Assembly (NCBI GenBank): GCA_921293015.1
Contig: OV121094.1
Coordinates: 6,562,764-6,626,763, forward strand
Source: Phorcus lineatus
Taxonomy: Eukaryota > Mollusca > Gastropoda > Trochida > Trochidae
Reading direction: 5' to 3'
Length of the DNA: 64,000 nucleotides
A program made the position numbers and the translations under genes. This document shows positions 17,549 to 44,200 of the stretch, piece after piece. The notes under the pieces were generated by a model. That model was not told where the DNA came from and searched no databases. It saw only the letters and a list, made by a program, of their open reading frames with translations. Positions within the stretch are counted from its first letter, which is position 1. Each line of letters opens with the position of its first letter.

Positions 17549-17659
17549 ACGATAACTTTCTTAAAAATGCATATTTCTAAACCAAACTTTCATCAAATGT
17601 ACATCACATTGTGTTCTATCGATTGAGCATTTAAAATTTCCTGTCAGATTCTTGCTTTG

Positions 17660-20600: not shown

Positions 20601-23600
20601 ATAGCTGATTTTGACCAAAATCGTGGAAAAAGACTATGTCCAATGTATGCATATTGTTGTAGCGAGCGCGATAACTTTCTTAAAAATGCATATTTCTAAA
20701 CCAAACTTTCATCAAATGTACATCACATCGTGTTCTATCGATTGAGCATTTAAAATTTCCTGTCAGAATCTTGGTTTGGGCTCCAGATTCGAGCTTATAC
20801 AGGTGCAGATAGCTGATTTTGACCAAAATCGCGGAAAAAGACTATGTCCAATGTATGCATATTGTTGTAGCGAGCGCGATAACTTTCTTAAAAATGCATA
20901 TTTCTAAACCAAACTTTCATCAAATGTACATCACATTGTGTTCTATCGATTGAGCATTTAAAATTTCCTGTCAGATTCTTGCTTTGGGCTCCAGATTCGA
21001 GCTTATACAGGTGCAGATAGCTGATTTTGACCAAAATCGCGGAAAAAGACTATGTCCAATGTATGCATATTGTTGTAGCGAGCGCGATAACTTTCTTAAA
21101 CATGCATATTTCTAAACCAAACTTTCATCAAATGTACATCACATTGTGTTCTATCGATTGAGCATTTAAAATTTCCTGTCTGATTCTTGGTTTGGGCTCC
21201 AGATTCGAGCTTATACAGGTGCAGAAAGCTGATTTTGACCAAAATCGCGGAAAAAGACTATGTCCAATGTATGCATATTGTTGTAGCGAGCGCGATAACT
21301 TTCTTAAAAATGCATATTTCTAAACCAAACTTTCATCAAATATACATCACATTGTGTTCTATCGATTGAGCATTTAAAATTTCCTGTCAGATTCTTGCTT
21401 TGGGCTCCAGATTCGAGCTTATACAGGTGCAGATAGCTGATTTTGACCAAAATCGCGGAAAAAGACTATGTCCAATGTATGCATATTGTTGTAGCGAGCG
21501 CGATAACTTTCTTAAAAATGCATATTTCTAAACCAAACTTTCATCAAATGTACATCACATCGTGTTCTATCGATTGAGCATTTAAAATTTCCTGTCAGAA
21601 TCTTGGTTTGGGCTCCAGATTCGAGCTTATACAGGTGCAGATAGCTGATTTTGACCAAAATCGCGGAAAAAGACTATGTCCAATGTATGCATATTGTTGT
21701 AGCGAGCGCGATAACTTTCTTAAAAATGCATATTTCTAAACCAAACTTTCATCAAATGTACATCACATTGTGTTCTATCGATTGAGCATTTAAAATTTCC
21801 TGTCAGATTCTTGCTTTGGGCTCCAGATTCGAGCTTATACAGGTGCAGATAGCTGATTTGACCAAAATCGCGGAAAAAGACTATGTCCAATGTATGCATA
21901 TTGTTGTAGCGAGCACGATAACTTTCTTAAAAATGCATATTTCTAAACCAAACTTTCATCAAATGTACATCACATTGTGTTCTATCGATTGAGCAATACC
22001 AATTTCCTGTCAGATTCTTGCTTTAGGCTCCAGATTCGAGCTTATACAGGTGCAGATAGCTGATTTTGACCTAAATCGCGGAAAAAGACTATGTCCAATG
22101 TATGCATATTGTTGTAGCGAGCGCGATAACTTTCTTAAAAATGCATATTTCTAAACCAAACTTTCATCAAATGTACATCACATTGTGTTCTATCGATTGA
22201 GCAATACCAATTTCCTGTCAGATTCTTGGTTTGGGCTCTAGATTCGAGCTTATACAGGTGCAGATAGCTGATTTTGACCAAAATCGCGGAAAAAGACTAT
22301 GTCCAATGTATGCATATTGTTGTAGCGAGCGCGATAACTTTCTTAAAAATGTATATTTCTAAACCAAACTTTCATCAAATGTACATCACATCGTGTTCTA
22401 TCGATTGAGCATTTAAAATTTCCTGTCAGAATCTTGGTTTGGGCTCCAGATTCGAGCTTATACAGGTGCAGATAGCTGATTTTGACCAAAATCGCGGAAA
22501 AAGACTATGTCCAATGTATGCATATTGTTGTAGCGAGCGCGATAACTTTCTTAAAAATGCATATTTCTAAACCAAACTTTCATCAAATGTACATCACATT
22601 GTGTTCTATCGATTGAGCATTTAAAATTTCCTGTCTGATTCTTGGTTTGGGCTCCAGATTCGAGCTTATACAGGTGCAGAAAGCTGATTTTGACCAAAAT
22701 CGCGGAAAAAGACTATGTCCAATGTATGCATATTGTTGTAGCGAGCGCGATAACTTTCTTAAAAATGCATATTTCTAAACCAAACTTTCATCAAATGTAC
22801 ATCACATTGTGTTCTATCGATTGAGCATTTAAAATTTCCTGTCAGATTCTTGCTTTGGGCTCCAGATTCGAGCTTATACAGGTGCAGATAGCTGATTTTG
22901 ACCAAAATCGTGGAAAAAGACTATGTCCAATGTATGCATATTGTTGTAGCGAGCGCGATAACTTTCTTACAAATGCATATTTCTAAACCAAACTTTCATC
23001 AAATGTACATCACATTGTGTTCTATCGATTGAGCAATACCAATTTCCTGTCAGATTCTTGGTTTGGGCTCCAGATTCGAGCTTATACAGGTGCAGATAGC
23101 TGATTTTGACCAAAATCGCGGAAAAAGACTATGTCCAATGTATGCATATTGTTGTAGCGAGCACGATAACTTTCTTAAAAATGCATATTTCTAAACCAAA
23201 CTTTCATCAAATGTACATCACATTGTGTTCTATCGATTGAGCAATACCAATTTCCTGTCAGATTCTTGGTTTGGGCTCCAGATTCGAGCTTATACAGGTG
23301 CAGATAGCTGATTTTGACCAAAATCGCGGAAAAAGACTATGTCCAATGTATGCATATTGTTGTAGCGAGCGCGATAACTTTCTTAAAAATGCATATTTCT
23401 AAACCAAACTTTCATCAAATGTACATCACATTGTGTTCTATCGATTGAGCATTTAAAATTTCCTGTCAGATTCTTGCTTTGGGCTCCAGATTCGAGCTTA
23501 TACAGGTGCAGATAGCTGATTTTGACCAAAATCGTGGAAAAAGACTATGTCCAATGTATGCATATTGTTGTAGCGAGCGCGATAACTTTCTTAAAAATGC

Positions 23601-23881
23601 ATATTTCTAAACCAAACTTTCATCAAATGTACATCACATCGTGTTCTATCGATTGAGCATTTAAAATTTCCTGTCAGAATCTTGGTTTGGGCTCCAGATT
23701 CGAGCTTATACAGGTGCAGATAGCTGATTTTGACCAAAATCGCGGAAAAAGACTATGTCCAATGTATGCATATTGTTGTAGCGAGCGCGATAACTTTCTT
23801 AAAAATGCATATTTCTAAACCAAACTTTCATCAAATGTACATCACATTGTGTTCTATCGATTGAGCATTTAAAATTTCCTG
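17660..23881 (+). repeat. 14-monomer tandem block, period 2,911 bp
   Basis: Self-similar at an offset of 2,911 bp, which is 14 x 208 minus 1. The missing base is a shared T deletion (gctgatttgacc at 18946-18948 and 21857-21859). Other private markers repeat at the same offset: caaatAtacatc near 18430 and 21341, ctttAggctcc near 19113 and 22024, gaccTaaatc, aaatgTatattt near 19440 and 22351, and aaatcgTgg at 20000 and 22911. One difference noted is agcgagcAcg near 19626 against agcgagcGcg near 22537. It overlaps the start of the 6-monomer block. Confidence 0.88.
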
Positions 23882-26071
23882 TCTGATTCTTGGTTTGGGC
23901 TCCAGATTCGAGCTTATACAGGTGCAGAAAGCTGATTTTGACCAAAATCGCGGAAAAAGACTATGTCCAATGTATGCATATTGTTGTAGCGAGCGCGATA
24001 ACTTTCTTAAAAATGCATATTTCTAAACCAAACTTTCATCAAATGTACATCACATTGTGTTCTATCGATTGAGCATTTAAAATTTCCTGTCAGATTCTTG
24101 CTTTGGGCTCCAGATTCGAGCTTATACAGGTGCAGATAGCTGATTTTGACCAAAATCGTGGAAAAAGACTATGTCCAATGTATGCATATTGTTGTAGCGA
24201 GCGCGATAACTTTCTTACAAATGCATATTTCTAAACCAAACTTTCATCAAATGTACATCACATTGTGTTCTATCGATTGAGCAATACCAATTTCCTGTCA
24301 GATTCTTGGTTTGGGCTCCAGATTCGAGCTTATACAGGTGCAGATAGCTGATTTTGACCAAAATCGCGGAAAAAGACTATGTCCAATGTATGCATATTGT
24401 TGTAGCGAGCACGATAACTTTCTTAAAAATGCATATTTCTAAACCAAACTTTCATCAAATGTACATCACATTGTGTTCTATCGATTGAGCAATACCAATT
24501 TCCTGTCAGATTCTTGGTTTGGGCTCCAGATTCGAGCTTATACAGGTGCAGATAGCTGATTTTGACCAAAATCGCGGAAAAAGACTATGTCCAATGTATG
24601 CATATTGTTGTAGCGAGCGCGATAACTTTCTTAAAAATGCATATTTCTAAACCAAACTTTCATCAAATGTACATCACATTGTGTTCTATCGATTGAGCAT
24701 TTAAAATTTCCTGTCAGATTCTTGCTTTGGGCTCCAGATTCGAGCTTATACAGGTGCAGATAGCTGATTTTGACCAAAATCGTGGAAAAAGATTATGTCC
24801 AATGTATGCATATTGTTGTAGCGAGCGCGATAACTTTCTTAAAAATGCATATTTCTAAACCAAACTTTCATCAAATGTACATCACATCGTGTTCTATCGA
24901 TTGAGCATTTAAAATTTCCTGTCAGAATCTTGGTTTGGGCTCCAGATTCGAGCTTATACAGGTGCAGATAGCTGATTTTGACCAAAATCGCGGAAAAAGA
25001 CTATGTCCAATGTATGCATATTGTTGTAGCGAGCGCGATAACTTTCTTAAAAATGCATATTTCTAAACCAAACTTTCATCAAATGTACATCACATTGTGT
25101 TCTATCGATTGAGCATTTAAAATTTCCTGTCTGATTCTTGGTTTGGGCTCCAGATTCGAGCTTATACAGGTGCAGAAAGCTGATTTTGACCAAAATCGCG
25201 GAAAAAGACTATGTCCAATGTATGCATATTGTTGTAGCGAGCGCGATAACTTTCTTAAAAATGCATATTTCTAAACCAAACTTTCATCAAATGTACATCA
25301 CATTGTGTTCTATCGATTGAGCATTTAAAATTTCCTGTCAGATTCTTGCTTTGGGCTCCAGATTCGAGCTTATACAGGTGCAGATAGCTGATTTTGACCA
25401 AAATCGTGGAAAAAGACTATGTCCAATGTATGCATATTGTTGTAGCGAGCGCGATAACTTTCTTACAAATGCATATTTCTAAACCAAACTTTCATCAAAT
25501 GTACATCACATTGTGTTCTATCGATTGAGCAATACCAATTTCCTGTCAGATTCTTGGTTTGGGCTCCAGATTCGAGCTTATACAGGTGCAGATAGCTGAT
25601 TTTGACCAAAATCGCGGAAAAAGACTATGTCCAATGTATGCATATTGTTGTAGCGAGCACGATAACTTTCTTAAAAATGCATATTTCTAAACCAAACTTT
25701 CATCAAATGTACATCACATTGTGTTCTATCGATTGAGCAATACCAATTTCCTGTCAGATTCTTGGTTTGGGCTCCAGATTCGAGCTTATACAGGTGCAGA
25801 TAGCTGATTTTGACCAAAATCGCGGAAAAAGACTATGTCCAATGTATGCATATTGTTGTAGCGAGCGCGATAACTTTCTTAAAAATGCATATTTCTAAAC
25901 CAAACTTTCATCAAATGTACATCACATTGTGTTCTATCGATTGAGCATTTAAAATTTCCTGTCAGATTCTTGCTTTGGGCTCCAGATTCGAGCTTATACA
26001 GGTGCAGATAGCTGATTTTGACCAAAATCGTGGAAAAAGATTATGTCCAATGTATGCATATTGTTGTAGCG
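22360..26071 (+). repeat. 6-monomer block repeated about three times, period 1,248 bp
   Basis: The set of variants gtcTgattcttgg with agaAag, aaatcgTgg with cttaCaaatg, and two gcaatacc monomers recurs at 22642, 23890 and 25138. The T of aaatcgTgg lies at 22911, 24159 and 25407, exactly 1,248 bp apart. The variant gaTtatgtcc is shared only by the last two copies (24793 and 26041), which gives an order of duplication. Confidence 0.88.
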
Positions 26072-27053
26072 AGCACGATAACTTTCTTACAAATGCATAT
26101 TTCTAAACCAAACTTTCATCAAATGTACATCACATTGTGTTCTATCGATTGAGCAATACCAATTTCCTGTCAGATTCTTGGTTTGGGCTCCAGATTCGAG
26201 CTTATACAGGTGCAGATAGCTGATTTTGACCAAAATCGCGGAAAAAGACTATGTCCAATGTATGCATATTGTTGTAGCGAGCGCGATAACTTTCTTAAAA
26301 ATGCATATTTCTAAACCAAACTTTCATCAAATGTACATCACATTGTGTTCTATCGATTGAGCATTTAAAATTTCCTGTCAGATTCTTGCTTTGGGCTCCA
26401 GATTCGAGCTTATACAGGTGCAGATAGCTGATTTTGACCAAAATCGCGGAAAAAGACTATGTCCAATGTATGCATATTGTTGTAGCGAGCGCGATAACTT
26501 TCTTAAAAATGCATATTTCTAAACCAAACTTTCATCAAATGTACATCACATTGTGTTCTATCGATTGAGCATTTAAAATTTCCTGTCTGATTCTTGGTTT
26601 GGGCTCCAGATTCGAGCTTATACAGGTGCAGAAAGCTGATTTTGACCAAAATCGCGGAAAAAGACTATGTCCAATGTATGCATATTGTTGTAGCGAGCGC
26701 GATAACTTTCTTAAAAATGCATATTTCTAAACCAAACTTTCATCAAATGTACATCACATTGTGTTCTATCGATTGAGCATTTAAAATTTCCTGTCTGATT
26801 CTTGGTTTGGGCTCCAGATTCGAGCTTATACAGGTGCAGATAGCTGATTTTGACCAAAATCGCGGAAAAAGACTATGTCCAATGTATGCATATTGTTGTA
26901 GCGAGCGCGATAACTTTCTTAAAAATGCATATTTCTAAACCAAACTTTCATCAAATGTACATCACATTGTGTTCTATCGATTGAGCATTTAAAATTTCCT
27001 GTCAGATTCTTGGTTTGGGCTCCAGATTCGAGCTTATACAGGTGCAGATAGCT

Positions 27054-27069
27054 GATTTTGACCAAAATC
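27054..27069. other. Dyad symmetry in each monomer
   Basis: GATTTTGACCAAAATC is a perfect 7-bp inverted repeat with a 2-bp spacer, at monomer positions 50-65, shown here in the representative copy. It is kept in most monomers. One variant class (gctgTttttgacc, for example near 6256, 9591, 17281, 39201, 45025 and 60208) breaks one arm, and another (ttttAacc, for example near 31011 and 36086) changes the spacer. It could bind a dimeric protein; that is inference only. Confidence 0.7.
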
Positions 27070-27093
27070 GCGGAAAAAGACTATGTCCAATGT

Positions 27094-27141
27094 ATGCATA
27101 TTGTTGTAGCGAGCGCGATAACTTTCTTAAAAATGCATATT
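27094..27141 (+). repeat. Short internal direct repeat ATGCATATT, 39 bp apart
   Basis: ATGCATATT occurs at 27094-27102 and 27133-27141 within the monomer. The ATGCAT core is itself palindromic. The flanks do not match, so this does not show that the 208-bp unit arose by internal duplication; it may be two binding sites or coincidence. Confidence 0.6.
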
Positions 27142-30100
27142 TCTAAACCAAACTTTCATCAAATGTACATCACATTGTGTTCTATCGATTGAGCATTTAA
27201 AATTTCCTGTCAGATTCTTGGTTTGGGCTCCAGATTCGAGCTTATACAGGTGCAGATAGCTGATTTTGACCAAAATCGCGGAAAAAGACTATGTCCAATG
27301 TATGCATATTGTTGTAGCGAGCGCGATAACTTTCTTTAAAATGCATATTTCTAAACCAAACTTTCATCAAATGTACATCACATTGTGTTCTATCGATTGA
27401 GCATTTAAAATTTCCTGTCTGATTCTTGGTTTGGGCTCCAGATTCGAGCTTATACAGGTGCAGAAAGCTGATTTTGACAAAAATCGCGGAAAAAGACTAT
27501 GTCCAATGTATGCATATTGTTGTAGCGAGCGCGATAACTTTCTTAAAAATGCATATTTCTAAACCAAACTTTCATCAAATGTACATCACATTGTGTTCTA
27601 TCGATTGAGCATTTAAAATTTCCTGTCTGATTCTTGGTTTGGGCTCCAGATTCGAGCTTATACAGGTGCAGATAGCTGATTTTGACCAAAATCGCGGAAA
27701 AAGACTATGTCCAATGTATGCATATTGTTGTAGCGAGCGCGATAACTTTCTTAAAAATGCATATTTCTAAACCAAACTTTCATCAAATGTACATCACATT
27801 GTGTTCTATCGATTGAGCATTTAAAATTTCCTGTCAGATTCTTGGTTTGGGCTCCAGATTCGAGCTTATACAGGTGCAGATAGCTGATTTTGACCAAAAT
27901 CGCGGAAAAAGACTATGTCCAATGTATGCATATTGTTGTAGCGAGCGCGATAACTTTCTTAAAAATGCATATTTCTAAACCAAACTTTCATCAAATGTAC
28001 ATCACATTGTGTTCTATCGATTGAGCATTTAAAATTTCCTGTCAGATTCTTGGTTTGGGCTCCAGATTCGAGCTTATACAGGTGCAGATAGCTGATTTTG
28101 ACCAAAATCGCGGAAAAAGACTATGTCCAATGTATGCATATTGTTGTAGCGAGCGCGATAACTTTCTTTAAAATGCATATTTCTAAACCAAACTTTCATC
28201 AAATGTACATCACATTGTGTTCTATCGATTGAGCATTTAAAATTTCCTGTCTGATTCTTGGTTTGGGCTCCAGATTCGAGCTTATACAGGTGCAGAAAGC
28301 TGATTTTGACCAAAATCGCGGAAGAAGACTATGTCCAATGTATGCATATTGTTGTGACGAGCGCGATAACTTTCTTAAAAATGCATATTTCTAACCCAAA
28401 CTTTCATCAAATGTACATCACATTGTGTTCTATCGATTGAGCATTTAAAATTTCCTGTCTGATTCTTGGTTTGGGCTCCAGATTCGAGCTTATACAGGTG
28501 CAGAAAGCTGATTTTAACCAAAATCGCGGAAAAAGACTATGTCCAATGTATGCATATTGTTGTAGCGAGCGCGATAACTTTCTTAAAAATGCATATTTCT
28601 AAACCAAACTTTCATCAAATGTACATCACATTGTGTTCTATCGATTGAGCATTTAAAATTTCCTGTCAGATTCTTGCTTTGGGCTCCAGATTCGAGCTTA
28701 TACAGGTGCAGATAGCTGATTTTGACCAAAATCGCGGAAAAAGACTATGTCCAATGTATGCATATTGTTGTAGCGAGCGCGATAACTTTCTTAAAAATGC
28801 ATATTTCTAAACCAAACTTTCATCAAATGTACATCACATTGTGTTCTATCGATTGAGCATTTAAAATTTCCTGTCTGATTCTTGGTTTGGGCTCCAGATT
28901 CGAGCTTATACAGGTGCAGAAAGCTGATTTTGACCAAAATCGCGGAAAAAGACTATGTCCAATGTATGCATATTGTTGTAGCGAGCGCGATAACTTTCTT
29001 AAAAATGCATATTTCTAAACCAAACTTTCATCAAATGTACATCACATTGTGTTCTATCGATTGAGCATTTAAAATTTCCTGTCAGATTCTTGGTTTGGGC
29101 TCCAGATTCGAGCTTATACAGGTGCAGATAGCTGATTTTGACCAAAATCGCGGAAAAAGACTATGTCCAATGTATGCATATTGTTGTAGCGAGCGCGATA
29201 ACTTTCTTAAAAATGCATATTTCTAAACCAAACTTTCATCAAATGTACATCACATTGTGTTCTATCGATTGAGCATTTAAAATTTCCTGTCAGATTCTTG
29301 GTTTGGGCTCCAGATTCGAGCTTATACAGGTGCAGATAGCTGATTTTGACCAAAATCGCGGAAAAAGACTATGTCCAATGTATGCATATTGTTGTAGCGA
29401 GCGCGATAACTTTCTTTAAAATGCATATTTCTAAACCAAACTTTCATCAAATGTACATCACATTGTGTTCTATCGATTGAGCATTTAAAATTTCCTGTCT
29501 GATTCTTGGTTTGGGCTCCAGATTCGAGCTTATACAGGTGCAGAAAGCTGATTTTGACAAAAATCGCGGAAAAAGACTATGTCCAATGTATGCATATTGT
29601 TGTAGCGAGCGCGATAACTTTCTTAAAAATGCATATTTCTAAACCAAACTTTCATCAAATGTACATCACATTGTGTTCTATCGATTGAGCATTTAAAATT
29701 TCCTGTCTGATTCTTGGTTTGGGCTCCAGATTCGAGCTTATACAGGTGCAGATAGCTGATTTTGACCAAAATCGCGGAAAAAGACTATGTCCAATGTATG
29801 CATATTGTTGTAGCGAGCGCGATAACTTTCTTAAAAATGCATATTTCTAAACCAAACTTTCATCAAATGTACATCACATTGTGTTCTATCGATTGAGCAT
29901 TTAAAATTTCCTGTCAGATTCTTGGTTTGGGCTCCAGATTCGAGCTTATACAGGTGCAGATAGCTGATTTTGACCAAAATCGCGGAAAAAGACTATGTCC
30001 AATGTATGCATATTGTTGTAGCGAGCGCGATAACTTTCTTAAAAATGCATATTTCTAAACCAAACTTTCATCAAATGTACATCACATTGTGTTCTATCGA

Positions 30101-32283
30101 TTGAGCATTTAAAATTTCCTGTCAGATTCTTGCTTTGGGCTCCAGATTCGAGCTTATACAGGTGCAGATAGCTGATTTTGACCAAAATCGCGGAAAAAGA
30201 CTATGTCCAATGTATGCATATTGTTGTAGCGAGCGCGATAACTTTCTTTAAAATGCATATTTCTAAACCAAACTTTCATCAAATGTACATCACATTGTGT
30301 TCTATCGATTGAGCATTTAAAATTTCCTGTCTGATTCTTGGTTTGGGCTCCAGATTCGAGCTTATACAGGTGCAGAAAGCTGATTTTGACCAAAATCGCG
30401 GAAAAAGACTATGTCCAATGTATGCATATTGTTGTGACGAGCGCGGTAGCTTTCTTAAAAATGCATATTTCTAACCCAAACTTTCATCAAATGTACATCA
30501 CATTGTGTTCTATCGATTGAGCATTTAAAATTTCCTGTCTGATTCTTGGTTTGGGCTCCAGATTCGAGCTTATACAGGTGCAGAAAGCTGATTTTGACCA
30601 AAATCGCGGAAAAAGACTATGTCCAATGTATGCATATTGTTGTAGCGAGCGCGATAACTTTCTTAAAAATGCATATTTCTAAACCAAACTTTCATCAAAT
30701 GTACATCACATTGTGTTCTATCGATTGAGCATTTAAAATTTCCTGTCAGATTCTTGCTTTGGGCTCCAGATTCGAGCTTATACAGGTGCAGATAGCTGAT
30801 TTTGACCAAAATCGCGGAAAAAGACTATGTCCAATGTATGCATATTGTTGTAGCGAGCGCGATAACTTTCTTAAAAATGCATATTTCTAAACCAAACTTT
30901 CATCAAATGTACATCACATTGTGTTCTATCGATTGAGCATTTAAAATTTCCTGTCAAATTCTTGCTTTGGGCTCCAGATTCGAGCTTATACAGGTGCAGA
31001 TAGCTGATTTTAACCAAAATCGCGGAAAAAGACTATGTCCAATGTATGCATATTGTTGTAGCGAGCGCGATAACTTTCTTAAAAATGCATATTTCTAAAC
31101 CAAACTTTCATCAAATGTACATCACATTGTGTTCTATCGATTGAGCATTTAAAATTTCCTGTCTGATTCTTGGTTTGGGCTCCAGATTCGAGCTTATACA
31201 GGTGCAGAAAGCTGATTTTGACCAAAATCGCGGAAAAAGACTATGTCCAATGTATGCATATTGTTGTAGCGAGCGCGATAACTTTCTTAAAAATGCATAT
31301 TTCTAAACCAAACTTTCATCAAATGTACATCACATTGTGTTCTATCGATTGAGCATTTAAAATTTCCTGTCAGATTCTTGCTTTGGGCTCCAGATTCGAG
31401 CTTATACAGGTGCAGATAGCTGATTTTGACCAAAATCGCGGAAAAAGACTATGTCCAATGTATGCATATTGTTGTAGCGAGCGCGATAACTTTCTTAAAA
31501 ATGCATATTTCTAAACCAAACTTTCATCAAATGTACATCACATTGTGTTCTATCGATTGAGCATTTAAAATTTCCTGTCTGATTCTTGGTTTGGGCTCCA
31601 GATTCGAGCTTATACAGGTGCAGAAAGCTGATTTTGACCAAAATCGCGGAAAAAGACTATGTCCAATGTATGCATATTGTTGTAGCGAGCGCGATAACTT
31701 TCTTAAAAATGCATATTTCTAAACCAAACTTTCATCAAATGTACATCACATTGTGTTCTATCGATTGAGCTTTTAAAATTTCCTGTCAGATTCTTGGTTT
31801 GGGCTCCAGATTCGAGCTTATACAGGTGCAGATAGCTGATTTTGACCAAAATCGCGGAAAAAGACTATGTCCAATGTATGCATATTGTTGTAGCGAGCGC
31901 GATAACTTTCTTAAAAATGCATATTTCTAAACCAAACTTTCATCAAATGTACATCACATTGTGTTCTATCGATTGAGCATTTAAAATTTCCTGTCAGATT
32001 CTTGCTTTGGGCTCCAGATTCGAGCTTATACAGGTGCAGATAGCTGATTTTGACCAAAATCGCGGAAAAAGACTATGTCCAATGTATGCATATTGTTGTA
32101 GCGAGCGCGATAACTTTCTTAAAAATGCATATTTCTAAACCAAACTTTCATCAAATGTACATCACATTGTGTTCTATCGATTGAGCATTTAAAATTTCCT
32201 GTCTGATTCTTGGTTTGGGCTCCAGATTCGAGCTTATACAGGTGCAGAAAGCTGATTTTGACCAAAATCGCGGAAAAAGACTA

Positions 32284-32309
32284 CAGTAGAACTCGGATAT
32301 AACGAACTC
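32284..32309 (+). repeat. Left terminal inverted repeat
   Basis: It begins CAGTAGAACTCGGATATAAC and pairs with the reverse complement of 33171-33196: 24 of 26 positions agree, with mismatches at positions 10 (T/A) and 20 (C/G). A CENP-B-box-like motif on the minus strand (32291-32307) lies within it. Confidence 0.93.
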
Positions 32310-32328
32310 CAAGGGACCAGCGAATCTA

Positions 32329-32345
32329 GTTCGCTATATCCGGTG
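32329..32345 (+). promoter_or_regulatory. Box-like subterminal repeat at the left end
   Basis: GTTCGCTATATCCGGTG matches eight of the nine fixed CENP-B-box positions (T for the last G). A partial copy, GTTCGCTACTCACG, follows. Inside the left TIR, 32291-32307 is another 8/9 match on the minus strand. The left end therefore has one inverted and one direct copy. Confidence 0.6.
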
Positions 32346-32445
32346 TTCGCTACTCACGTTTGGCAGCCATCTTGGATTATCAAAATGAAAACGTACATGT
32401 CTAAACACAAAAATAACAAAGATAAATTATACTGCACTTCATATC

Positions 32446-32451
32446 TTTATT
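32446..32451 (-). terminator. AATAAA polyadenylation-signal match overlapping the stop codon
   Basis: On the minus strand the last codon and stop read GAATAAAG, so an AATAAA hexamer overlaps the TAA stop at 32449-32447. A hexamer at this place could end the transcript inside the element. A chance match is possible in AT-rich DNA. Confidence 0.35.
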
Positions 32452-32779
32452 CTAATTTCGATGCTAATTCGTTTGCCTTTGTCTGCAACATTGGGCCATT
32501 TAACGGAATGTTCTCACTTCTTGCCCCTTGAAACCATTTGTAGAGAGCATCTTCTACATCTTGGTGATTGGCAGCTCTTAACTTTTTGCGGGCGGGGCCA
32601 AAATCAGACGACACAGATTGAGCCAGAATAGCTTCGCGATTCTTAATGATGCCACTCAAAGTAGATTTTGGAATATCAAAGTCCAAAGCGATGTTTTTCT
32701 TAGATTTTACACCCAAATCAACGGCCTCTATGATACGAAGTTTAGTATCAAAAGTGATAGCTTTACGTTTACCCGCCAT
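32447..32779 (-). CDS. Truncated pogo/Tigger transposase: CENP-B-type DNA-binding domain only
   Basis: 110 codons. Residues about 1-53, beginning MAGKRKAITFDTKLRIIEAV, look like the CENP-B N-terminal (psq-like) helix-turn-helix, with IPKSTLSGIIKNRE as the recognition-helix region. Residues about 65-110 (ARKKL, then DVEDALYKWFQGARSENIPL, then LQTKANELA) match the start of the second, CENPB/Tc5-type HTH. The frame stops at a TAA where that domain would continue, and no DDE domain follows. I chose the ATG at 32779 because MAGKRK-type starts are typical of the family and its context is good (A at -3, G at +4). An in-frame ATG at 32821 would add 14 residues (MVTECQFTCVSCHK) without family resemblance. 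If made, the product could bind DNA but not catalyse transposition; a trans-acting repressor is conceivable but unproven. Confidence 0.8.
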   Translation of the reverse strand: MAGKRKAITFDTKLRIIEAVDLGVKSKKNIALDFDIPKSTLSGIIKNREAILAQSVSSDFGPARKKLRAANHQDVEDALYKWFQGARSENIPLNGPMLQTKANELASKLE

Positions 32780-32827
32780 CTTGTGACAAGAAACGCAAGT
32801 GAACTGACATTCTGTGACCATGTCGGG

Positions 32828-32835
32828 TATTTAAA
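32828..32835 (-). promoter_or_regulatory. TATA-like box upstream of the transposase remnant
   Basis: The minus strand reads TTTAAATA about 50 bp before the chosen ATG (32779). A start site about 30 bp downstream would fall after the upstream ATG at 32821, which favours the MAGKRK start. Weak evidence in AT-rich sequence. Confidence 0.3.
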
Positions 32836-32882
32836 CACAACATCTGTTTACTTAACAGTTAATTTTCTAACAACGTTGAAGA

Positions 32883-33007
32883 TACCGCTGATTGACTAAG
32901 CTGACACGGAGTGAGTTTGCTCTAACAATAATGAGGAGCTTTGATTCACCACGGACAATGTTGATCTTACCGCTAATTGAGTAAAGCTGACACTGATTGA
33001 GTTCGCT
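32883..33007 (+). repeat. Imperfect direct repeat of about 40 bp in the element's leader
   Basis: 32883-32921 (TACCGCTGATTGACTAAGCT onward) and 32968-33007 (TACCGCTAATTGAGTAAAGC onward) align over their length with several mismatches and small indels; both end near GTTYGCT. They lie upstream of the transposase remnant. Role unknown. Confidence 0.65.
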
Positions 33008-33062
33008 ATAAGTGATGTTAATTGACCCTCGGGGCATGAAAATTAGTTCCCTATATCAGATA

Positions 33063-33079
33063 ATTCGCTATATCCGGGT
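33063..33079 (+). promoter_or_regulatory. CENP-B-box-like site, all nine fixed positions matched
   Basis: ATTCGCTATATCCGGGT fits NTTCGNNNNANNCGGGN, the core consensus of the vertebrate CENP-B box, at TTCG (33064-33067), A (33072) and CGGG (33075-33078). A degenerate second copy (7/9) follows directly at 33078-33094. In this element the motif is most simply read as a transposase-binding subterminal repeat. Confidence 0.6.
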
Positions 33080-33140
33080 TCGCTATACACGTATAATTTT
33101 AATGATATTATATAAAGCTTATGACGGGACTTAAAAAATG

Positions 33141-33189
33141 GTTCACTATATCCGAGTGTTCGCTATATCCGAGTTCCTTATATCCGTGT
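33141..33189 (+). repeat. Three tandem subterminal box-like repeats at the right end
   Basis: Units of about 16-17 bp share the core CTATATCCGAG or a close variant: 33141-33157 (TTCA...CGAG, 7/9 of the box), 33158-33174 (TTCG...CGAG, 8/9) and 33173-33189 (TTCC...CGTG, 7/9). The last overlaps the right TIR. Reiterated subterminal motifs next to TIRs are typical transposase-binding sites. Confidence 0.75.
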
Positions 33190-33196
33190 TCTACTG
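33171..33196 (-). repeat. Right terminal inverted repeat
   Basis: Its reverse complement begins CAGTAGAACACGGATATAAG. It is the partner of the left repeat and abuts the right-hand TA. Similarity with the left end stops after 26 bp. Confidence 0.93.
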
Positions 33197-35299
33197 TATG
33201 TCCAATGTATGCATATTGTTGTAGCGAGCGCGATAACTTTCTTAAAAATGCATATTTCTAAACCAAACTTTCATCAAATGTACATCACATTGTGTTCTAT
33301 CGATTGAGCATTTAAAATTTCCTGTCAGATTCTTGGTTTGGGCTCCAGATTCGAGCTTATACAGGTGCAGATAGCTGATTTTGACCAAAATCGCGGAAAA
33401 AGACTATGTCCAATGTATGCATATTGTTGTAGCGAGCGCGATAACTTTCTTAAAAATGCATATTTCTAAACCAAACTTTCATCAAATGTACATCACATTG
33501 TGTTCTATCGATTGAGCATTTAAAATTTCCTGTCAGATTCTTGGTTTGGGCTCCAGATTCGAGCTTATACAGGTGCAGATAGCTGATTTTGACCAAAATC
33601 GCTGAAAAAGACTATGTCCAATGTATGCATATTGTTGTAGCGAGCGCGATAACTTTCTTTAAAATGCATATTTCTAAACCAAACTTTCATCAAATGTACA
33701 TCACATTGTGTTCTATCGATTGAGCATTTAAAATTTCCTGTCTGATTCTTGGTTTGGGCTCCAGATTCGAGCTTATACAGGTGCAGAAAGCTGATTTTGA
33801 CCAAAATCGCGGAAAAAGACTATGTCCAATGTATGCATATTGTTGTAGCGAGCGCGATAACTTTCTTAAAAATGCATATTTCTAAACCAAACTTTCATCA
33901 AATGTACATCACATTGTGTTCTATCGATTGAGCATTTAAAATTTCCTGTCTGATTCTTGCTTTGGGCTCCAGATTCGAGCTTATACAGGTGCAGATAGCT
34001 GATTTTGACCAAAATCGCGGAAAAAGACTATGTCCAATGTATGCATATTGTTGTAGCGAGCGCGATAACTTTCTTAAAAATGCATATTTCTAAACCAAAC
34101 TTTCATCAAATGTACATCACATTGTGTTCTATCGATTGAGCATTTAAAATTTCCTGTCAGATTCTTGGTTTGGGCTCCAGATTCGAGCTTATACAGGTGC
34201 AGATAGCTGATTTTGACCAAAATCGCGGAAAAAGACTATGTCCAATGTATGCATATTGTTGTAGCGAGCGCGATAACTTTCTTAAAAATGCATATTTCTA
34301 AACCAAACTTTCATCAAATGTACATCACATTGTGTTCTATCGATTGAGCATTTAAAATTTCCTGTCAGATTCTTGGTTTGGGCTCCAGATTCGAGCTTAT
34401 ACAGGTGCAGATAGCTGATTTTGACCAAAATCGCGGAAAAAGACTATGTCCAATGTATGCATATTGTTGTAGCGAGCGCGATAACTTTCTTTAAAATGCA
34501 TATTTCTAAACCAAACTTTCATCAAATGTACATCACATTGTGTTCTATCGATTGAGCATTTCAAATTTCCTGTCTGATTCTTGGTTTGGGCTCCAGATTC
34601 GAGCTTATACAGGTGCAGAAAGCTGATTTTGACCAAAATCGCGGAAAAAGACTATGTCCAATGTATGCATATTGTTGTAGCGAGCGCGATAACTTTCTTA
34701 AAAATGCATATTTCTAACCCAAACTTTCATCAAATGTACATCACATTGTGTTCTATCGATTGAGCATTTAAAATTTCCTGTCTGATTCTTGGTTTGGGCT
34801 CCAGATTCGAGCTTATACAGGTGCAGAAAGCTGATTTTGACCAAAATCGCGGAAAAAGACTATGTCCAATGTATGCATATTGTTGTAGCGAGCGCGATAA
34901 CTTTCTTAAAAATGCATATTTCTAAACCAAACTTTCATCAAATGTACATCACATTGTGTTCTATCGATTGAGCATTTAAAATTTCCTGTCAGATTCTTGC
35001 TTTGGGCTCCAGATTCGAGCTTATACAGGTGCAGATAGCTGATTTTGACCAAAATCGCGGAAAAAGACTATGTCCAATGTATGCATATTGTTGTAGCGAG
35101 CGCGATAACTTTCTTAAAAATGCATATTTCTAAACCAAACTTTCATCAAATGTACATCACATTGTGTTCTATCGATTGAGCATTTAAAATTTCCTGTCAA
35201 ATTCTTGCTTTGGGCTCCAGATTCGAGCTTATACAGGTGCAGATAGCTGATTTTAACCAAAATCGCGGAAAAAGACTATGTCCAATGTATGCATATTGT

Positions 35300-38200
35300 T
35301 GTAGCGAGCGCGATAACTTTCTTTAAAATGCATATTTCTAAACCAAACTTTCATCAAATGTACATCACATTGTGTTCTATCGATTGAGCATTTCAAATTT
35401 CCTGTCTGATTCTTGGTTTGGGCTCCAGATTCGAGCTTATACAGGTGCAGAAAGCTGATTTTGACCAAAATCGCGGAAAAAGACTATGTCCAATGTATGC
35501 ATATTGTTGTAGCGAGCGCGATAACTTTCTTAAAAATGCATATTTCTAACCCAAACTTTCATCAAATGTACATCACATTGTGTTCTATCGATTGAGCATT
35601 TAAAATTTCCTGTCTGATTCTTGGTTTGGGCTCCAGATTCGAGCTTATACAGGTGCAGAAAGCTGATTTTGACCAAAATCGCGGAAAAAGACTATGTCCA
35701 ATGTATGCATATTGTTGTAGCGAGCGCGATAACTTTCTTAAAAATGCATATTTCTAAACCAAACTTTCATCAAATGTACATCACATTGTGTTCTATCGAT
35801 TGAGCATTTAAAATTTCCTGTCAGATTCTTGCTTTGGGCTCCAGATTCGAGCTTATACAGGTGCAGATAGCTGATTTTGACCAAAATCGCGGAAAAAGAC
35901 TATGTCCAATGTATGCATATTGTTGTAGCGAGCGCGATAACTTTCTTAAAAATGCATATTTCTAAACCAAACTTTCATCAAATGTACATCACATTGTGTT
36001 CTATCGATTGAGCATTTAAAATTTCCTGTCAAATTCTTGCTTTGGGCTCCAGATTCGAGCTTATACAGGTGCAGATAGCTGATTTTAACCAAAATCGCGG
36101 AAAAAGACTATGTCCAATGTATGCATATTGTTGTAGCGAGCGCGATAACTTTCTTAAAAATGCATATTTCTAAACCAAACTTTCATCAAATGTACATCAC
36201 ATTGTGTTCTATCGATTGAGCATTTAAAATTTCCTGTCTGATTCTTGGTTTGGGCTCCAGATTCGAGCTTATACAGGTGCAGAAAGCTGATTTTGACCAA
36301 AATCGCGGAAAAAGACTATGTCCAATGTATGCATATTGTTGTAGCGAGCGCGATAACTTTCTTAAAAATGCATATTTCTAAACCAAACTTTCATCAAATG
36401 TACATCACATTGTGTTCTATCGATTGAGCATTTAAAATTTCCTGTCAGATTCTTGCTTTGGGCTCCAGATTCGAGCTTATACAGGTGCAGATAGCTGATT
36501 TTGACCAAAATCGCGGAAAAAGACTATGTCCAATGTATGCATATTGTTGTAGCGAGCGCGATAACTTTCTTAAAAATGCATATTTCTAAACCAAACTTTC
36601 ATCAAATGTACATCACATTGTGTTCTATCGATTGAGCATTTAAAATTTCCTGTCTGATTCTTGGTTTGGGCTCCAGATTCGAGCTTATACAGGTGCAGAT
36701 AGCTGATTTTGACCAAAATCGCGGAAAAAGACTATGTCCAATGTATGCATATTGTTGTAGCGAGCGCGATAACTTTCTTAAAAATGCATATTTCTAAACC
36801 AAACTTTCATCAAATGTACATCACATTGTGTTCTATCGATTGAGCATTTAAAATTTCCTGTCAGATTCTTGGTTTGGGCTCCAGATTCGAGCTTATACAG
36901 GTGCAGATAGCTGATTTTGACCAAAATCGCGGAAAAAGACTATGTCCAATGTATGCATATTGTTGTAGCGAGCGCGATAACTTTCTTAAAAATGCATATT
37001 TCTAAACTTAACTTTCATCAAATGTACATCACATTGTGTTCTATCGATTGAGCATTTAAAATTTCGTGTCAGATTCTTGGTTTGGGCTCCAGATTCGAGC
37101 TTATACAGGTGCAGATAGCTGATTTTGACCAAAATCGCGGAAAAAGACTATGTCCAATGTATGCATATTGTTGTAGCGAGCGCGATAACTTTCTTAAAAA
37201 TGCATATTTCTAAACCAAACTTTCATCAAATGTACATCACATTGTGTTCTATCGATTGAGCATTTAAAATTTCTTGTCAGATTCTTGCTTTGGGCTCCAG
37301 ATTCGAGCTTATACAGGTGCAGATAGCTGATTTTGACCAAAATCGCGGAAAAAGACTATGTCCAATGTATGCATATTGTTGTAGCGAGCGCAATAACTAT
37401 CTTAAAAATGCATATTTCTAAACCAAACTTTCATCAAATGTACATCACATTGTGTTCTATCGATTGAGCAATACCAATTTCCTGTCAGATTCTTGGTTTG
37501 GGCTCTAGATTCGAGCTTATACAGGTGCAGATAGCTGTTTTTGACCAAAATCGCGGAAAAAGACTATGTCTAATGTATGCATACTGTTGTAGCGAGCGCG
37601 ATAACTTTCTTAAAAATGCATATTTCTAAACTTAACTTTCATCAAATGTACATCACATTGTGTTCTATCGATTGAGCATTTAAAATTTCCTGTCAAATTC
37701 TTGCTTTGGGCTCCAGATTCGAGCTTATACAGGTGCAGATAGCTGATTTTGACCAAAATCGCGGAAAAAGACTATGTCCAATGTATGCATATTGTTGTAG
37801 CGAGCGCGATAACTTTCTTAAAAATGCATATTTCTAAACCAAACTTTCATCAAATGTACATCACATTGTGTTCTATCGATTGAGCATTTAAAATTTCCTG
37901 TCAGATTCTTGCTTTGGGCTCCAGATTCGAGCTTATACAGGTGCAGATAGCTGATTTTGACCAAAATCGCGGAAAAAGACTATGTCCAATGTATGCATAT
38001 TGTTGTAGCGAGCGCGATAACTTTCTTAAACATGCATATTTCTAAACCAAACTTTCATCAAATGTACATCACATTGTGTTCTATCGATTGAGCATTTAAA
38101 ATTTCCTGTCTGATTCTTGGTTTGGGCTCCAGATTCGAGCTTATACAGGTGCAGAAAGCTGATTTTGACCAAAATCGCGGAAAAAGACTATGTCCAATTT

Positions 38201-41200
38201 ATGCATATTGTTGTAGCGAGCGCGATAACTTTCTTAAAAATGCATATTTCTAAACCAAACTTTCATCAAATGTACATCACATTGTGTTCTATCGATTGAG
38301 CATTTAAAATTTCCTGTCAGATTCTTGCTTTGGGCTCCAGATTCGAGCTTATACAGGTGCAGATAGCTGATTTTGACCAAAATCGCGGAAAAAGACTATG
38401 TCCAATGTATGCATATTGTTGTAGCGAGCGCGATAACTTTCTTAAAAATGCATATTTCTAAACCAAACTTTCATCAAATGTACATCACATCGTGTTCTAT
38501 CGATTGAGCATTTAAAATTTCCTGTCAGAATCTTGGTTTGGGCTCCAGATTCGAGCTTATACAGGTGCAGATAGCTGATTTTGACCAAAATCGCGGAAAA
38601 AGACTATGTCCAATGTATGCATATTGTTGTAGCGAGCGCGATAACTTTCTTAAAAATGCATATTTCTAAACCAAACTTTCATCAAATGTACATCACATTG
38701 TGTTCTATCGATTGAGCATTTAAAATTTCTTGTCAGATTCTTGCTTTGGGCTCCAGATTCGAGCTTATACAGGTGCAGATAGCTGATTTTGACCAAAATC
38801 GCGGAAAAAGACTATGTCCAATGTATGCATATTGTTGTAGCGAGCGCGATAACTTTCTTAAAAATGCATATTTCTAAACCAAACTTTCATCAAATGTATA
38901 TCACATCGTGTTCTATCGATTGAGCATTTAAAATTTCCTGTCAGAATCTTGGTTTGGGCTCCAGATTCGAGCTTATACAGGTGCAGATAGCTGATTTTGA
39001 CCAAAATCGCGGAAAAAGACTATGTCCAATGTATGCATATTGTTGTAGCGAGCGCGATAACTTTCTTAAAAATGCATATTTCTAAACCAAACTTTCATCA
39101 AATGTACATCACATTGTGTTCTATCGATTGAGCATTTAAAATTTCCTGTCAGATTCTTGGTTTGGGCTCTAGATTCGAGCTTATACAGGTGCAGATAGCT
39201 GTTTTTGACCAAAATCGCGGAAAAAGACTATGTCTAATGTATGCATATTGTTGTAGCGAGCGCGATAACTTTCTTAAAAATGCATATTTCTAAACTTAAC
39301 TTTCATCAAATGTACATCACATTGTGTTCTATCGATTGAGCATTTAAAATTTCCTGTCAGATTCTTGCTTTGGGCTCCAGATTCGAGCTTATACAGGTGC
39401 AGATAGCTGATTTTGACCAAAATCGCGGAAAAAGACTATGTCCAATGTATGCATATTGTTGTAGCGAGCACGATAACTTTCTTAAAAATGCATATTTCTA
39501 AACCAAACTTTCATCAAATGTACATCACATTGTGTTCTATCGATTGAGCATTTAAAATTTCCTGTCAGATTCTTGCTTTGGGCTCTAGATTCGAGCTTAT
39601 ACAGGTGCAGATAGCTGATTTTGACCAAAATCGCGGAAAAAGACTATGTCCAATGTATGCATATTGTTGTAGCGAGCGCGATAACTTTCTTAAAAATGCA
39701 TATTTCTAAACCAAACTTTCATCAAATGTACATCACATCGTGTTCTATCGATTGAGCATTTAAAATTTCCTGTCAGAATCTTGGTTTGGGCTCCAGATTC
39801 GAGCTTATACAGGTGCAGATAGCTGATTTTGACCAAAATCGCGGAAAAAGACTATGTCCAATGTATGCATATTGTTGTAGCGAGCGCGATAACTTTCTTA
39901 AAAATGCATATTTCTAAACCAAACTTTCATCAAATGTACATCACATTGTGTTCTATCGATTGAGCATTTAAATTTTCCTGTCAGATTCTTGCTTTGGGCT
40001 CCAGATTCGAGCTTATACAGGTGCAGATAGCTGATTTTGACCAAAATCGCGGAAAAAGACTATGTCCAATGTATGCATATTGTTGTAGCGAGCGCGATAA
40101 CTTTCTTAAACATGCATATTTCTAAACCAAACTTTCATCAAATGTACATCACATTGTGTTCTATCGATTGAGCATTTAAAATTTCCTGTCTGATTCTTGG
40201 TTTGGGCTCCAGATTCGAGCTTATACAGGTGCAGAAAGCTGATTTTGACCAAAATCGCGGAAAAAGACTATGTCCAATGTATGCATATTGTTGTAGCGAG
40301 CGCGATAACTTTCTTAAAAATGCATATTTCTAAACCAAACTTTCATCAAATGTACATCACATTGTGTTCTATCGATTGAGCATTTAAAATTTCCTGTCAG
40401 ATTCTTGCTTTGGGCTCCAGATTCGAGCTTATACAGGTGCAGATAGCTGATTTTGACCAAAATCGCGGAAAAAGACTATGTCCAATGTATGCATATTGTT
40501 GTAGCGAGCGCGATAACTTTCTTAAAAATGCATATTTCTAAACCAAACTTTCATCAAATGTACATCACATTGTGTTCTATCGATTGAGCATTTAAAATTT
40601 CTTGTCAGATTCTTGCTTTGGGCTCCAGATTCGAGCTTATACAGGTGCAGATAGCTGATTTTGACCAAAATCGCGGAAAAAGACTATGTCCAATGTATGC
40701 ATATTGTTGTAGCGAGCGCGATAACTTTCTTAAAAATGCATATTTCTAAACCAAACTTTCATCAAATGTACATCACATTGTGTTCTATCGATTGAGCATT
40801 TCAAATTTCCTGTCTGATTCTTGGTTTGGGCTCCAGATTCGAGCTTATACAGGTGCAGATAGCTGATTTTGACCAAAATCGCGGAAAAAGACTATGTCCA
40901 ATGTATGCATATTGTTGTAGCGAGCGCGATAACTTTCTTAAAAATGCATATTTCTAAACCAAACTTTCATCAAATGTACATCACATTGTGTTCTATCGAT
41001 TGAGCATTTAAAATTTCCTGTCAGATTCTTGGTTTGGGCTCCAGATTCGAGCTTATACAGGTGCAGATAGCTGATTTTGACCAAAATCGCGGAAAAAGAC
41101 TATGTCCAATGTATGCATATTGTTGTAGCGAGCGCGATAACTTTCTTTAAAATGCATATTTCTAAACCAAACTTTCATCAAATATACATCACATTGTGTT

Positions 41201-44200
41201 CTATCGATTGAGCATTTCAAATTTCCTGTCTGATTCTTGGTTTGGGCTCCAGATTCGAGCTTATACAGGTGCAGAAAGCTGATGTTGACCAAAATCGCGG
41301 AAAAAGACTATGTCCAATGTATGCATATTGTTGTAGCGAGCGCGATAACTTTCTTAAAAATGCATATTTCTAACCCAAACTTTCATCAAATGTACATCAC
41401 ATTGTGTTCTATCGATTGAGCATTTAAAATTTCCTGTCTGATTCTTGGTTTGGGCTCCAGATTCGAGCTTATACAGGTGCAGAAAGCTGATTTTGACCAA
41501 AATCGCGGAAAAAGACTATGTCCAATGTATGCATATTGTTGTAGCGAGCGCGATAACTTTCTTAAAAATGCATATTTCTAAACCAAACTTTCATCAAATG
41601 TACATCACATTGTGTTCTATCGATTGAGCATTTAAAATTTCCTGTCAGATTCTTGCTTTGGGCTCCAGATTCGAGCTTATACAGGTGCAGATAGCTGATT
41701 TTGACCAAAATCGCGGAAAAAGACTATGTCCAATGTATGCATATTGTTGTAGCGAGCGCGATAACTTTCTTAAAAATGCATATTTCTAAACCAAACTTTC
41801 ATCAAATGTACATCACATTGTGTTCTATCGATTGAGCATTTAAAATTTCCTGTCAAATTCTTGCTTTGGGCTCCAGATTCGAGCTTATACAGGTGCAGAT
41901 AGCTGATTTTAACCAAAATCGCGGAAAAAGACTATGTCCAATGTATGCATATTGTTGTAGCGAGCGCGATAACTTTCTTAAAAATGCATATTTCTAAACC
42001 AAACTTTCATCAAATGTACATCACATTGTGTTCTATCGATTGAGCATTTAAAATTTCCTGTCTGATTCTTGGTTTGGGCTCCAGATTCGAGCTTATACAG
42101 GTGCAGAAAGCTGATTTTGACCAAAATCGCGGAAAAAGACTATGTCCAATGTATGCATATTGTTGTAGCGAGCGCGATAACTTTCTTAAAAATGCATATT
42201 TCTAAACCAAACTTTCATCAAATGTACATCACATTGTGTTCTATCGATTGAGCATTTAAAATTTCCTGTCAGATTCTTGCTTTGGGCTCCAGATTCGAGC
42301 TTATACAGGTGCAGATAGCTGATTTTGACCAAAATCGCGGAAAAAGACTATGTCCAATGTATGCATATTGTTGTAGCGAGCGCGATAACTTTCTTAAAAA
42401 TGCATATTTCTAAACCAAACTTTCATCAAATGTACATCACATTGTGTTCTATCGATTGAGCATTTAAAATTTCCTGTCTGATTCTTGGTTTGGGCTCCAG
42501 ATTCGAGCTTATACAGGTGCAGATAGCTGATTTTGACCAAAATCGCGGAAAAAGACTATGTCCAATGTATGCATATTGTTGTAGCGAGCGCGATAACTTT
42601 CTTAAAAATGCATATTTCTAAACCAAACTTTCATCAAATGTACATCACATTGTGTTCTATCGATTGAGCATTTAAAATTTCCTGTCAGATTCTTGGTTTG
42701 GGCTCCAGATTCGAGCTTATACAGGTGCAGATAGCTGATTTTGACCAAAATCGCGGAAAAAGACTATGTCCAATGTATGCATATTGTTGTAGCGAGCGCG
42801 ATAACTTTCTTAAAAATGCATATTTCTAAACCAAACTTTCATCAAATGTACATCACATTGTGTTCTATCGATTGAGCATTTAAAATTTCCTGTCAGATTC
42901 TTGCTTTGGGCTCCAGATTCGAGCTTATACAGGTGCAGATAGCTGATTTTGACCAAAATCGCGGAAAAAGACTATGTCCAATGTATGCATATTGTTGTAG
43001 CGAGCGCGATAACTTTCTTAAAAATGCATATTTCTAAACCAAACTTTCATCAAATGTACATCACATTGTGTTCTATCGATTGAGCATTTAAAATTTCTTG
43101 TCAGATTCTTGCTTTGGGCTCCAGATTCGAGCTTATACAGGTGCAGATAGCTGATTTTGACCAAAATCGCGGAAAAAGACTATGTCCAATGTATGCATAT
43201 TGTTGTAGCGAGCGCAATAACTATCTTAAAAATGCATATTTCTAAACCAAACTTTCATCAAATGTACATCACATTGTGTTCTATCGATTGAGCAATACCA
43301 ATTTCCTGTCAGATTCTTGGTTTGGGCTCTAGATTCGAGCTTATACAGGTGCAGATAGCTGTTTTTGACCAAAATCGCGGAAAAAGACTATGTCTAATGT
43401 ATGCATACTGTTGTAGCGAGCGCGATAACTTTCTTAAAAATGCATATTTCTAAACTTAACTTTCATCAAATGTACATCACATTGTGTTCTATCGATTGAG
43501 CATTTAAAATTTCCTGTCAAATTCTTGCTTTGGGCTCCAGATTCGAGCTTATACAGGTGCAGATAGCTGATTTTGACCAAAATCGCGGAAAAAGACTATG
43601 TCCAATGTATGCATATTGTTGTAGCGAGCGCGATAACTTTCTTAAAAATGCATATTTCTAAACCAAACTTTCATCAAATGTACATCACATTGTGTTCTAT
43701 CGATTGAGCATTTAAAATTTCCTGTCAGATTCTTGCTTTGGGCTCCAGATTCGAGCTTATACAGGTGCAGATAGCTGATTTTGACCAAAATCGCGGAAAA
43801 AGACTATGTCCAATGTATGCATATTGTTGTAGCGAGCGCGATAACTTTCTTAAACATGCATATTTCTAAACCAAACTTTCATCAAATGTACATCACATTG
43901 TGTTCTATCGATTGAGCATTTAAAATTTCCTGTCTGATTCTTGGTTTGGGCTCCAGATTCGAGCTTATACAGGTGCAGAAAGCTGATTTTGACCAAAATC
44001 GCGGAAAAAGACTATGTCCAATGTATGCATATTGTTGTAGCGAGCGCGATAACTTTCTTAAAAATGCATATTTCTAAACCAAACTTTCATCAAATGTACA
44101 TCACATTGTGTTCTATCGATTGAGCATTTAAAATTTCCTGTCAGATTCTTGCTTTGGGCTCCAGATTCGAGCTTATACAGGTGCAGATAGCTGATTTTGA

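What the first reader, a model, noticed from the sequence alone, without database searches (positions are those of the whole stretch)
32284..33196. A transposon carrying CENP-B-box-like sites and a CENP-B-like DNA-binding domain sits inside a box-free satellite
The element's ends carry a reiterated motif close to NTTCGNNNNANNCGGGN: one 9/9 match (33063-33079), three 8/9 (32291-32307 minus, 32329-32345, 33158-33174) and three 7/9 (33078-33094, 33141-33157, 33173-33189). Its only reading frame is the CENP-B/pogo DNA-binding domain. CENP-B is known to derive from pogo-like transposases and to bind a box in mammalian centromeric satellites. Here site and binder arrive together in a long satellite array whose monomer has one TTCG, no CGAA and no box. 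It looks like a snapshot of how such a pair could enter a centromere-like array. The centromere link is inference.
Basis: partly seen in the sequence, partly recalled or inferred. Interest (0 to 1): 0.8.

Follow-up and report, generated by a model that had tools for sequence, protein, structure and literature searches.

The report
Deleted pogo/Tigger transposon inside a satellite
A shortened copy of a very recently active cut-and-paste transposon happens to have landed in a long block of repeated DNA; its CENP-B-like binding sites and protein fragment are ordinary parts of that transposon family and do not show a centromere being built.

Summary
Window 32284-33196 is a 913-bp transposon with 24-bp inverted ends (22 of 24 alike) and a TA duplication, inserted cleanly into a 208-bp satellite. 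All seven listed box-like sites are there; the reading frame is a CENP-B_N domain plus half of a second DNA-binding domain.

The host genome (958 Mb, unnamed) explains it. The element is a 1,270-bp internal deletion of a 2,183-bp pogo/Tigger-type transposon; a full-length copy encodes a 534-aa DD30D transposase. The family has 69 exact left and 68 exact right ends on 18 contigs. In 38 two-ended copies read (of 56) there are 7 mismatches in 41,329 aligned bases and 38 distinct structures; all 38 carry the 9/9 site. The exact 17-mer occurs 67 times genome-wide, always 110 bp from a family right end, once in the array.

The satellite looks like one block of about 0.9-1.0 Mb on contig C29, without box-like sites outside the element in what was read. 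One insertion that has not spread is no evidence of a box and binder entering a centromere. The likeness of Tigger ends to the CENP-B box is already in print. Whether the array is centromeric was not testable.

The parts
32284..33196 (.). 913-bp non-autonomous pogo/Tigger-type transposon, ends CAGTAGAAC...GTTCTACTG
   Evidence: positions 1-170 and 169-913 are 100% identical to positions 1-170 and 1439-2183 of the full-length copy L017
32282..32283 (+). TA target-site duplication, left
   Evidence: joining the flanks with one TA gives a monomer that matches the 208-bp consensus at 208 of 208 positions
33197..33198 (+). TA target-site duplication, right
32284..32307 (+). Left terminal inverted repeat (24 bp, 22 of 24 alike with the right end), holding a box-like 8/9 site on the minus strand (32291-32307)
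33173..33196 (-). Right terminal inverted repeat
32329..32345 (+). Box-like subterminal repeat, 8/9
33063..33079 (+). Box-like subterminal repeat, 9/9; the exact 17-mer occurs 67 times in the genome, each time 110 bp from a family right end
33078..33094 (+). Box-like subterminal repeat, 7/9
33141..33189 (+). Three tandem box-like repeats (33141-33157 7/9, 33158-33174 8/9, 33173-33189 7/9)
32447..32821 (-). 124-aa frame (110 aa from the internal ATG at 32779): CENP-B_N plus the N-terminal half of HTH_Tnp_Tc5; a truncated transposase
32452..32453 (.). Internal-deletion junction (2 bp shared by both sides), 1,270 bp of the parent missing; the frame meets a stop one residue after leaving the parent's sequence
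   Evidence: for the junction; for the two frames
1..64000 (+). Host satellite array, 208-bp unit (299 of 302 units exactly 208 bp, these averaging 98.8% to consensus), interrupted by the element

Best explanation
The feature is an internally deleted, non-autonomous copy of a young pogo-superfamily (Tigger-type) DNA transposon that inserted at a TA in a satellite array. The TTCGCTATATCCG-type repeats at its ends are most likely the transposase's own binding sites (inferred), and the CENP-B-like frame is the transposase's N-terminal DNA-binding part, cut off by the deletion. It is, or very recently was, mobilised by transposase made by an intact relative elsewhere (inferred), or it inserted at full length and lost its middle in place afterwards. 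The deletion most likely arose by interrupted gap repair after excision (inferred from short shared bases at the junctions). Shown here: domain family, TA duplication, deletion structure, intact relative, genome-wide dispersal, near-zero divergence. Inferred: binding, mobilisation, route of the deletion.
For: Full-length 2,183-bp relative L017 with a 534-aa frame carrying CENP-B_N, HTH_Tnp_Tc5 and DDE_1 and a DD30D triad. Window copy 100% identical to it outside the deletion. 69 left and 68 right exact ends on 18 contigs, 56 pairing into copies of 463-2,183 bp. In the 38 of 56 read: TA on both sides in 36 of 38; 38 distinct structures (37 with deletions and the full-length one) and 7 mismatches in 41,329 aligned bases; of 40 junctions 26 share 1-4 bp, 4 share 6-14 bp, 3 share none and 7 carry 1-24 bp of filler. 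All 38 carry the 9/9 site and at least three 8/9 sites. Of the 38 loci held at that point (30 of them), only the window's own copy has satellite flanks.
Against: No binding or excision assay. No tree was built, so Tigger against pogoR within the pogo superfamily is open. Both ends are kept, so deleted copies should be mobile, yet only one pair among the 56 shares a length; mobilisation of deleted copies therefore looks rare. The junction overlaps come from BLAST ends and may be off by a base or so.
Confidence: 0.93

Rival explanations
1. Snapshot of a CENP-B-box/CENP-B-like pair entering a centromeric array: the insertion seeds boxes in the satellite and the encoded domain binds them.
For: Box-like sites including one 9/9 core, homology of the domain to human CENP-B, and a long box-free array around it.
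Against: One copy only, not spread in an array of about 0.9-1.0 Mb. The same sites are in 38 of 38 two-ended copies read, and the exact 17-mer is at 67 places. The fragment lacks the transposase core and matched no Pfam model beyond the DNA-binding ones at the cut-offs. The satellite was seen on one contig only. [quoted passage not shown] For 56 dispersed copies the chance of at least one landing in 1 Mb of 958 Mb is 0.057, low, but the window came to notice because it holds one.
Confidence: 0.03
2. The truncated frame is kept as a repressor of the family (like the KP derivative of the P element, recalled): a DNA-binding fragment that occupies transposon ends.
For: The frame keeps the first DNA-binding domain whole, and 23 of 38 two-ended copies read keep a frame of 98 aa or more from the internal ATG.
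Against: 15 of 38 keep less, 5 of them without the start. The two reading sets are biased in opposite ways: 25 copies were ranked by likeness to the window element, and the other 13 are ones not taken before, of which 1 of 13 keeps 100 aa or more; 18 of 56 were not read. Frame lengths include residues read on past the junction. The second DNA-binding domain is cut in half in the window copy.
Confidence: 0.04
3. The satellite context is an assembly error.
For: The window lies on a piece of about 80 kb between two 200-N gaps, with the satellite in opposite orientation just outside both.
Against: The element is flanked by satellite within one gap-free stretch, with a perfect TA duplication and a perfect empty monomer. 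The gaps cast doubt on the orientation and placing of the piece, not on the insertion.
Confidence: 0.02

Closest known systems
Tigger / pogoR families of the pogo superfamily (IS630-Tc1-mariner group)
   Same: TA duplication, 24-bp inverted ends, single gene with CENP-B_N + HTH_Tnp_Tc5 + DDE_1 in the full-length relative; DD30D within the published Tigger range DD29-36D (PMC7386202, passages); 2,183 bp within the published 1,018-4,525 bp (PMC9219625, passages)
   Different: The window copy lacks 1,270 bp and cannot make a whole transposase; a very young family in which nearly every copy is deleted differently
CENP-B and the CENP-B box of mammalian centromeric satellites
   Same: Homologous DNA-binding domain (E 9.6e-14 to 1hlv_A); end repeats share the spacing TTCG-N4-A-NN-CG and once the full 9-base core
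   Different: Sites lie in a transposon, not in satellite monomers; the protein is truncated; no evidence of a centromeric role. CENPB is placed with pogoR rather than Tigger by PMC7386202 (passages)
Deletion derivatives attributed to abortive gap repair (Ds, mariner)
   Same: Both ends kept, internal sequence lost, mostly short shared bases at the junctions
   Different: Here almost every copy is its own derivative; one pair of equal length among 56

Membership tests
pogo superfamily, Tigger or pogoR type | TA target-site duplication | tested here: met
   Window copy and 36 of 38 copies read
pogo superfamily, Tigger or pogoR type | Short terminal inverted repeats | tested here: met
   24 bp with 2 differences
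pogo superfamily, Tigger or pogoR type | CENP-B_N + HTH_Tnp_Tc5 + DDE_1 transposase | tested here: met
   Met by the full-length relative L017; the window copy has only the first and half of the second
pogo superfamily, Tigger or pogoR type | DD29-36D catalytic triad | tested here: met
   D185, D290, D321, spacing 30, in L017, assigned by motif; the window copy lacks the catalytic part
pogo superfamily, Tigger or pogoR type | Position in the transposase tree (Tigger against pogoR) | not tested
   No tree built
CENP-B-box-bearing centromeric satellite | Box in the satellite monomers | tested here: not met
   Consensus monomer best match 6/9; no site >=7/9 outside the element in the window or in 52,211 bases of 15 array loci
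CENP-B-box-bearing centromeric satellite | CENP-A/CENH3 chromatin on the array | not testable with these tools
   Needs ChIP
CENP-B-box-bearing centromeric satellite | Satellite shared by many chromosomes (usual, not required) | tested here: inconclusive
   Lists capped at 100 places both begin on C29, so no exact 35-mer on C1-C28 if, as, contigs are listed in order; later contigs not seen, though the total fits the one C29 block
CENP-B-like centromere protein | Complete protein with a dimerisation domain, as in CENP-B | tested here: not met
   124-aa truncated transposase frame with only DNA-binding matches above the cut-offs

The most novel reading that the evidence does not exclude
The C29 block is the centromere of that chromosome, and this insertion, made during a transposon burst that may still be under way, has just placed sites for a CENP-B-like DNA-binding protein into it, with intact transposase copies elsewhere in the genome able to supply the binder.
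Probability: 0.03. Interest if true: 0.7.

Novelty: new member of a known kind. Interest (0 to 1): 0.22.

Why it matters
It shows that an arresting coincidence (box plus binder in a satellite) follows directly from what a pogo/Tigger transposon is. The more useful by-product is a very young family (7 mismatches in 41,329 aligned bases over 38 copies) in which nearly every copy carries its own internal deletion. That makes it a good natural system for asking when and how deletion derivatives of pogo elements form.

Tried and rejected
Structure prediction of the 110-aa domain without an alignment gave a poor model (mean pLDDT 49), so no fold search was run; the sequence match to 1hlv_A stands instead. 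A text search for the end motif together with Tigger found no paper, and one for a 208-bp mollusc satellite found none; neither the family, the satellite nor the host was identified by name. Casola 2008 and Smit and Riggs 1996 are not held; what is said of that work comes from papers that cite it. Searches were seen as listings, with only the papers named in the report opened at passages. Higher-order structure in the satellite was looked for by lag identity: no strong period, best lag 37 at 98.34% against 97.99% at lag 1. The idea that the frame is selectively kept was examined and not supported, on a biased sample. In the census script one left-end coordinate was mistyped (C13), giving 970 bp for a copy whose length is 770 bp as read from L088 in the same call; the range and the number of distinct lengths do not change. 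That call's line '36 of 38 distinct' took in weak self-matches; one search leaves out matches under 90% and gives 38 of 38. A first attempt to find both ends in the six longest loci failed because of how it fetched and scanned them and was redone.

Full report
What was checked. The window is C29:6,562,764-6,626,763 of a 957.8-Mb, 74-contig genome of an unnamed host. It is satellite from end to end, with a 208-bp unit. After taking out the element and one TA, 299 of 302 units are exactly 208 bp and these average 98.8% to their consensus; the interrupted unit matches the consensus at 208 of 208 positions. The element at 32284-33196 starts CAGTAGAAC, ends GTTCTACTG and has TA on both sides.

The motif. 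All seven listed sites are confirmed, and an eighth weak one lies in the reading frame. Their number exceeds that in first-order Markov sequences (8 against 1.47 at >=7/9; 4 against 0.11 at >=8/9); the form TTCG-N4-A-NN-CG occurs 5 times against a mean of 0.10. This is because the ends are built of one repeat: TTCGCTATATCCG is found 472 times in the genome and its reversal 8 times, and a 58-bp stretch at the right end is itself present twice, 95 bp apart, at 77.6% identity. The 17-mer with the 9/9 core occurs 67 times in the genome, 67 of 67 exactly 110 bp from one of the 68 exact right ends. The 9/9 core as such occurs 1,110 times, fewer than the 2,547 of the reversed control, so one perfect core is no sign of function.

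The frame. The 124-aa frame at 32447-32821(-) matches CENP-B_N and half of HTH_Tnp_Tc5 and human CENP-B 1hlv_A at E 9.6e-14. In the full-length relative L017 the same frame runs on to 534 aa, with both DNA-binding domains and DDE_1 and a DD30D triad assigned by motif. In the window copy the frame shares 123 residues with L017 and then has one residue and a stop. So the only frame is the CENP-B domain because the transposase gene begins near the right end and the deletion removed the rest.

The family. A DNA search gave 63 matching pieces, with 40 of 314 candidates scored. Exact left ends number 69 and exact right ends 68, on 18 contigs; 56 pair within 6 kb into copies of 463-2,183 bp, leaving 13 left-only and 12 right-only. 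Copies with a changed end are missed by this census. Letters were read for 38 of the 56 two-ended copies and 12 of the 25 one-ended ones. Among the 38 there are 7 mismatches in 41,329 aligned bases and 38 distinct structures, the full-length one among them; of 40 deletion junctions 26 share 1-4 bp, 4 share 6-14 bp, 3 share none and 7 carry filler. A few copies also have smaller indels inside the kept parts. Of the 56 pairs only two copies share a length (854 bp, both on C12), and their matched coordinates agree, so they may be one structure twice. TA lies on both sides in 36 of 38. The 12 one-ended copies read are 99-100% identical up to the point where the element stops; some may be broken by another insertion rather than cut short, since only 2-4 kb was read around each. 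A paper on mariner elements says that internal deletions are easily explained by abortive gap repair (PMC4161770, passages); applying it here is inference.

Is it special to the satellite? Of the 38 loci held, only the window copy itself has satellite flanks. In the end census one left end and one right end fall inside the array, both those of this element. With 56 copies the chance of at least one landing in 1 Mb of 958 Mb is 0.057, and the window came to notice because it has one. The insertion has not spread in the assembled array. The satellite runs from about C29:6.17 Mb (first exact 35-mer listed at 6,170,694) to between 7.1 and 7.2 Mb: ten of ten 801-base probes from 6.2 to 7.1 Mb are fully satellite, and the probes at 6.1 and 7.2 Mb have none. 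The exact 35-mer occurs 3,638 times, 258 of them in the window, which scales to about 0.9 Mb, so this block accounts for roughly all copies. The lists, capped at 100 places, begin on C29 in both orientations; if contigs are listed in order, as, there is none on C1-C28, while contigs after C29 were not seen. The window's piece, about 80 kb, sits between two 200-N gaps with the satellite in opposite orientation just outside; the flip may be a scaffolding choice.

What is known. [quoted passage not shown] The likeness of the box to Tigger inverted repeats is stated in PMC5857280 (passages), and to pogo inverted repeats in PMC6947457 (passages). PMC7386202 derives CENPB from pogoR and gives Tigger DD29-36D (passages). 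PMC9219625 gives TA duplications, inverted ends of about 20 bp and complete elements of 1,018-4,525 bp (passages).

Judgement. An element of this family brings a CENP-B-like domain and these end repeats unless a deletion has removed the domain, so finding both where such an element landed is expected. What deserves a note is the state of the family: near-zero divergence with nearly every copy deleted in its own way.

Noticed in passing
L075 (C5, about 40.592-40.594 Mb) and L042 (C12, about 45.672 Mb): Copies without one exact transposon end that keep all (L075, element positions 1-1874) or almost all (L042, 205-2183) of the transposase frame (204-1808); the protein search shows open frames of 537 and 539 aa there. 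They could be immobile sources of transposase.
   Followed up: partly
host genome, 56 two-ended copies; 38 read: Nearly every copy of the family has its own internal deletion, with almost no substitutions, as if deletion accompanied most transposition or followed it in place.
   Followed up: partly
C1:28570475-28571587 of the host genome: A short tandem array in which TTCGGTCAACGCGGG, a 9/9 box core, recurs at about 58-bp steps or multiples of it (14 listed places); its letters differ from this transposon's repeat.
   Followed up: no
C29:6548838-6549037 and 6628724-6628923: 200-N gaps bound the satellite piece holding the window, and satellite orientation flips at both, which may be a scaffolding artefact.
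   Followed up: partly
C15:24903944, C25:8372266, C7:55091367, C29:14908824, C12:49579020 of the host genome: Distant relatives of the domain (26-39% identity) in open frames of 537-1,092 aa: other pogo families or host genes derived from them.
   Followed up: no
window 1-64000: Six satellite positions have a common variant (second base in 11-40% of 299 units) without a clear higher-order period.
   Followed up: no
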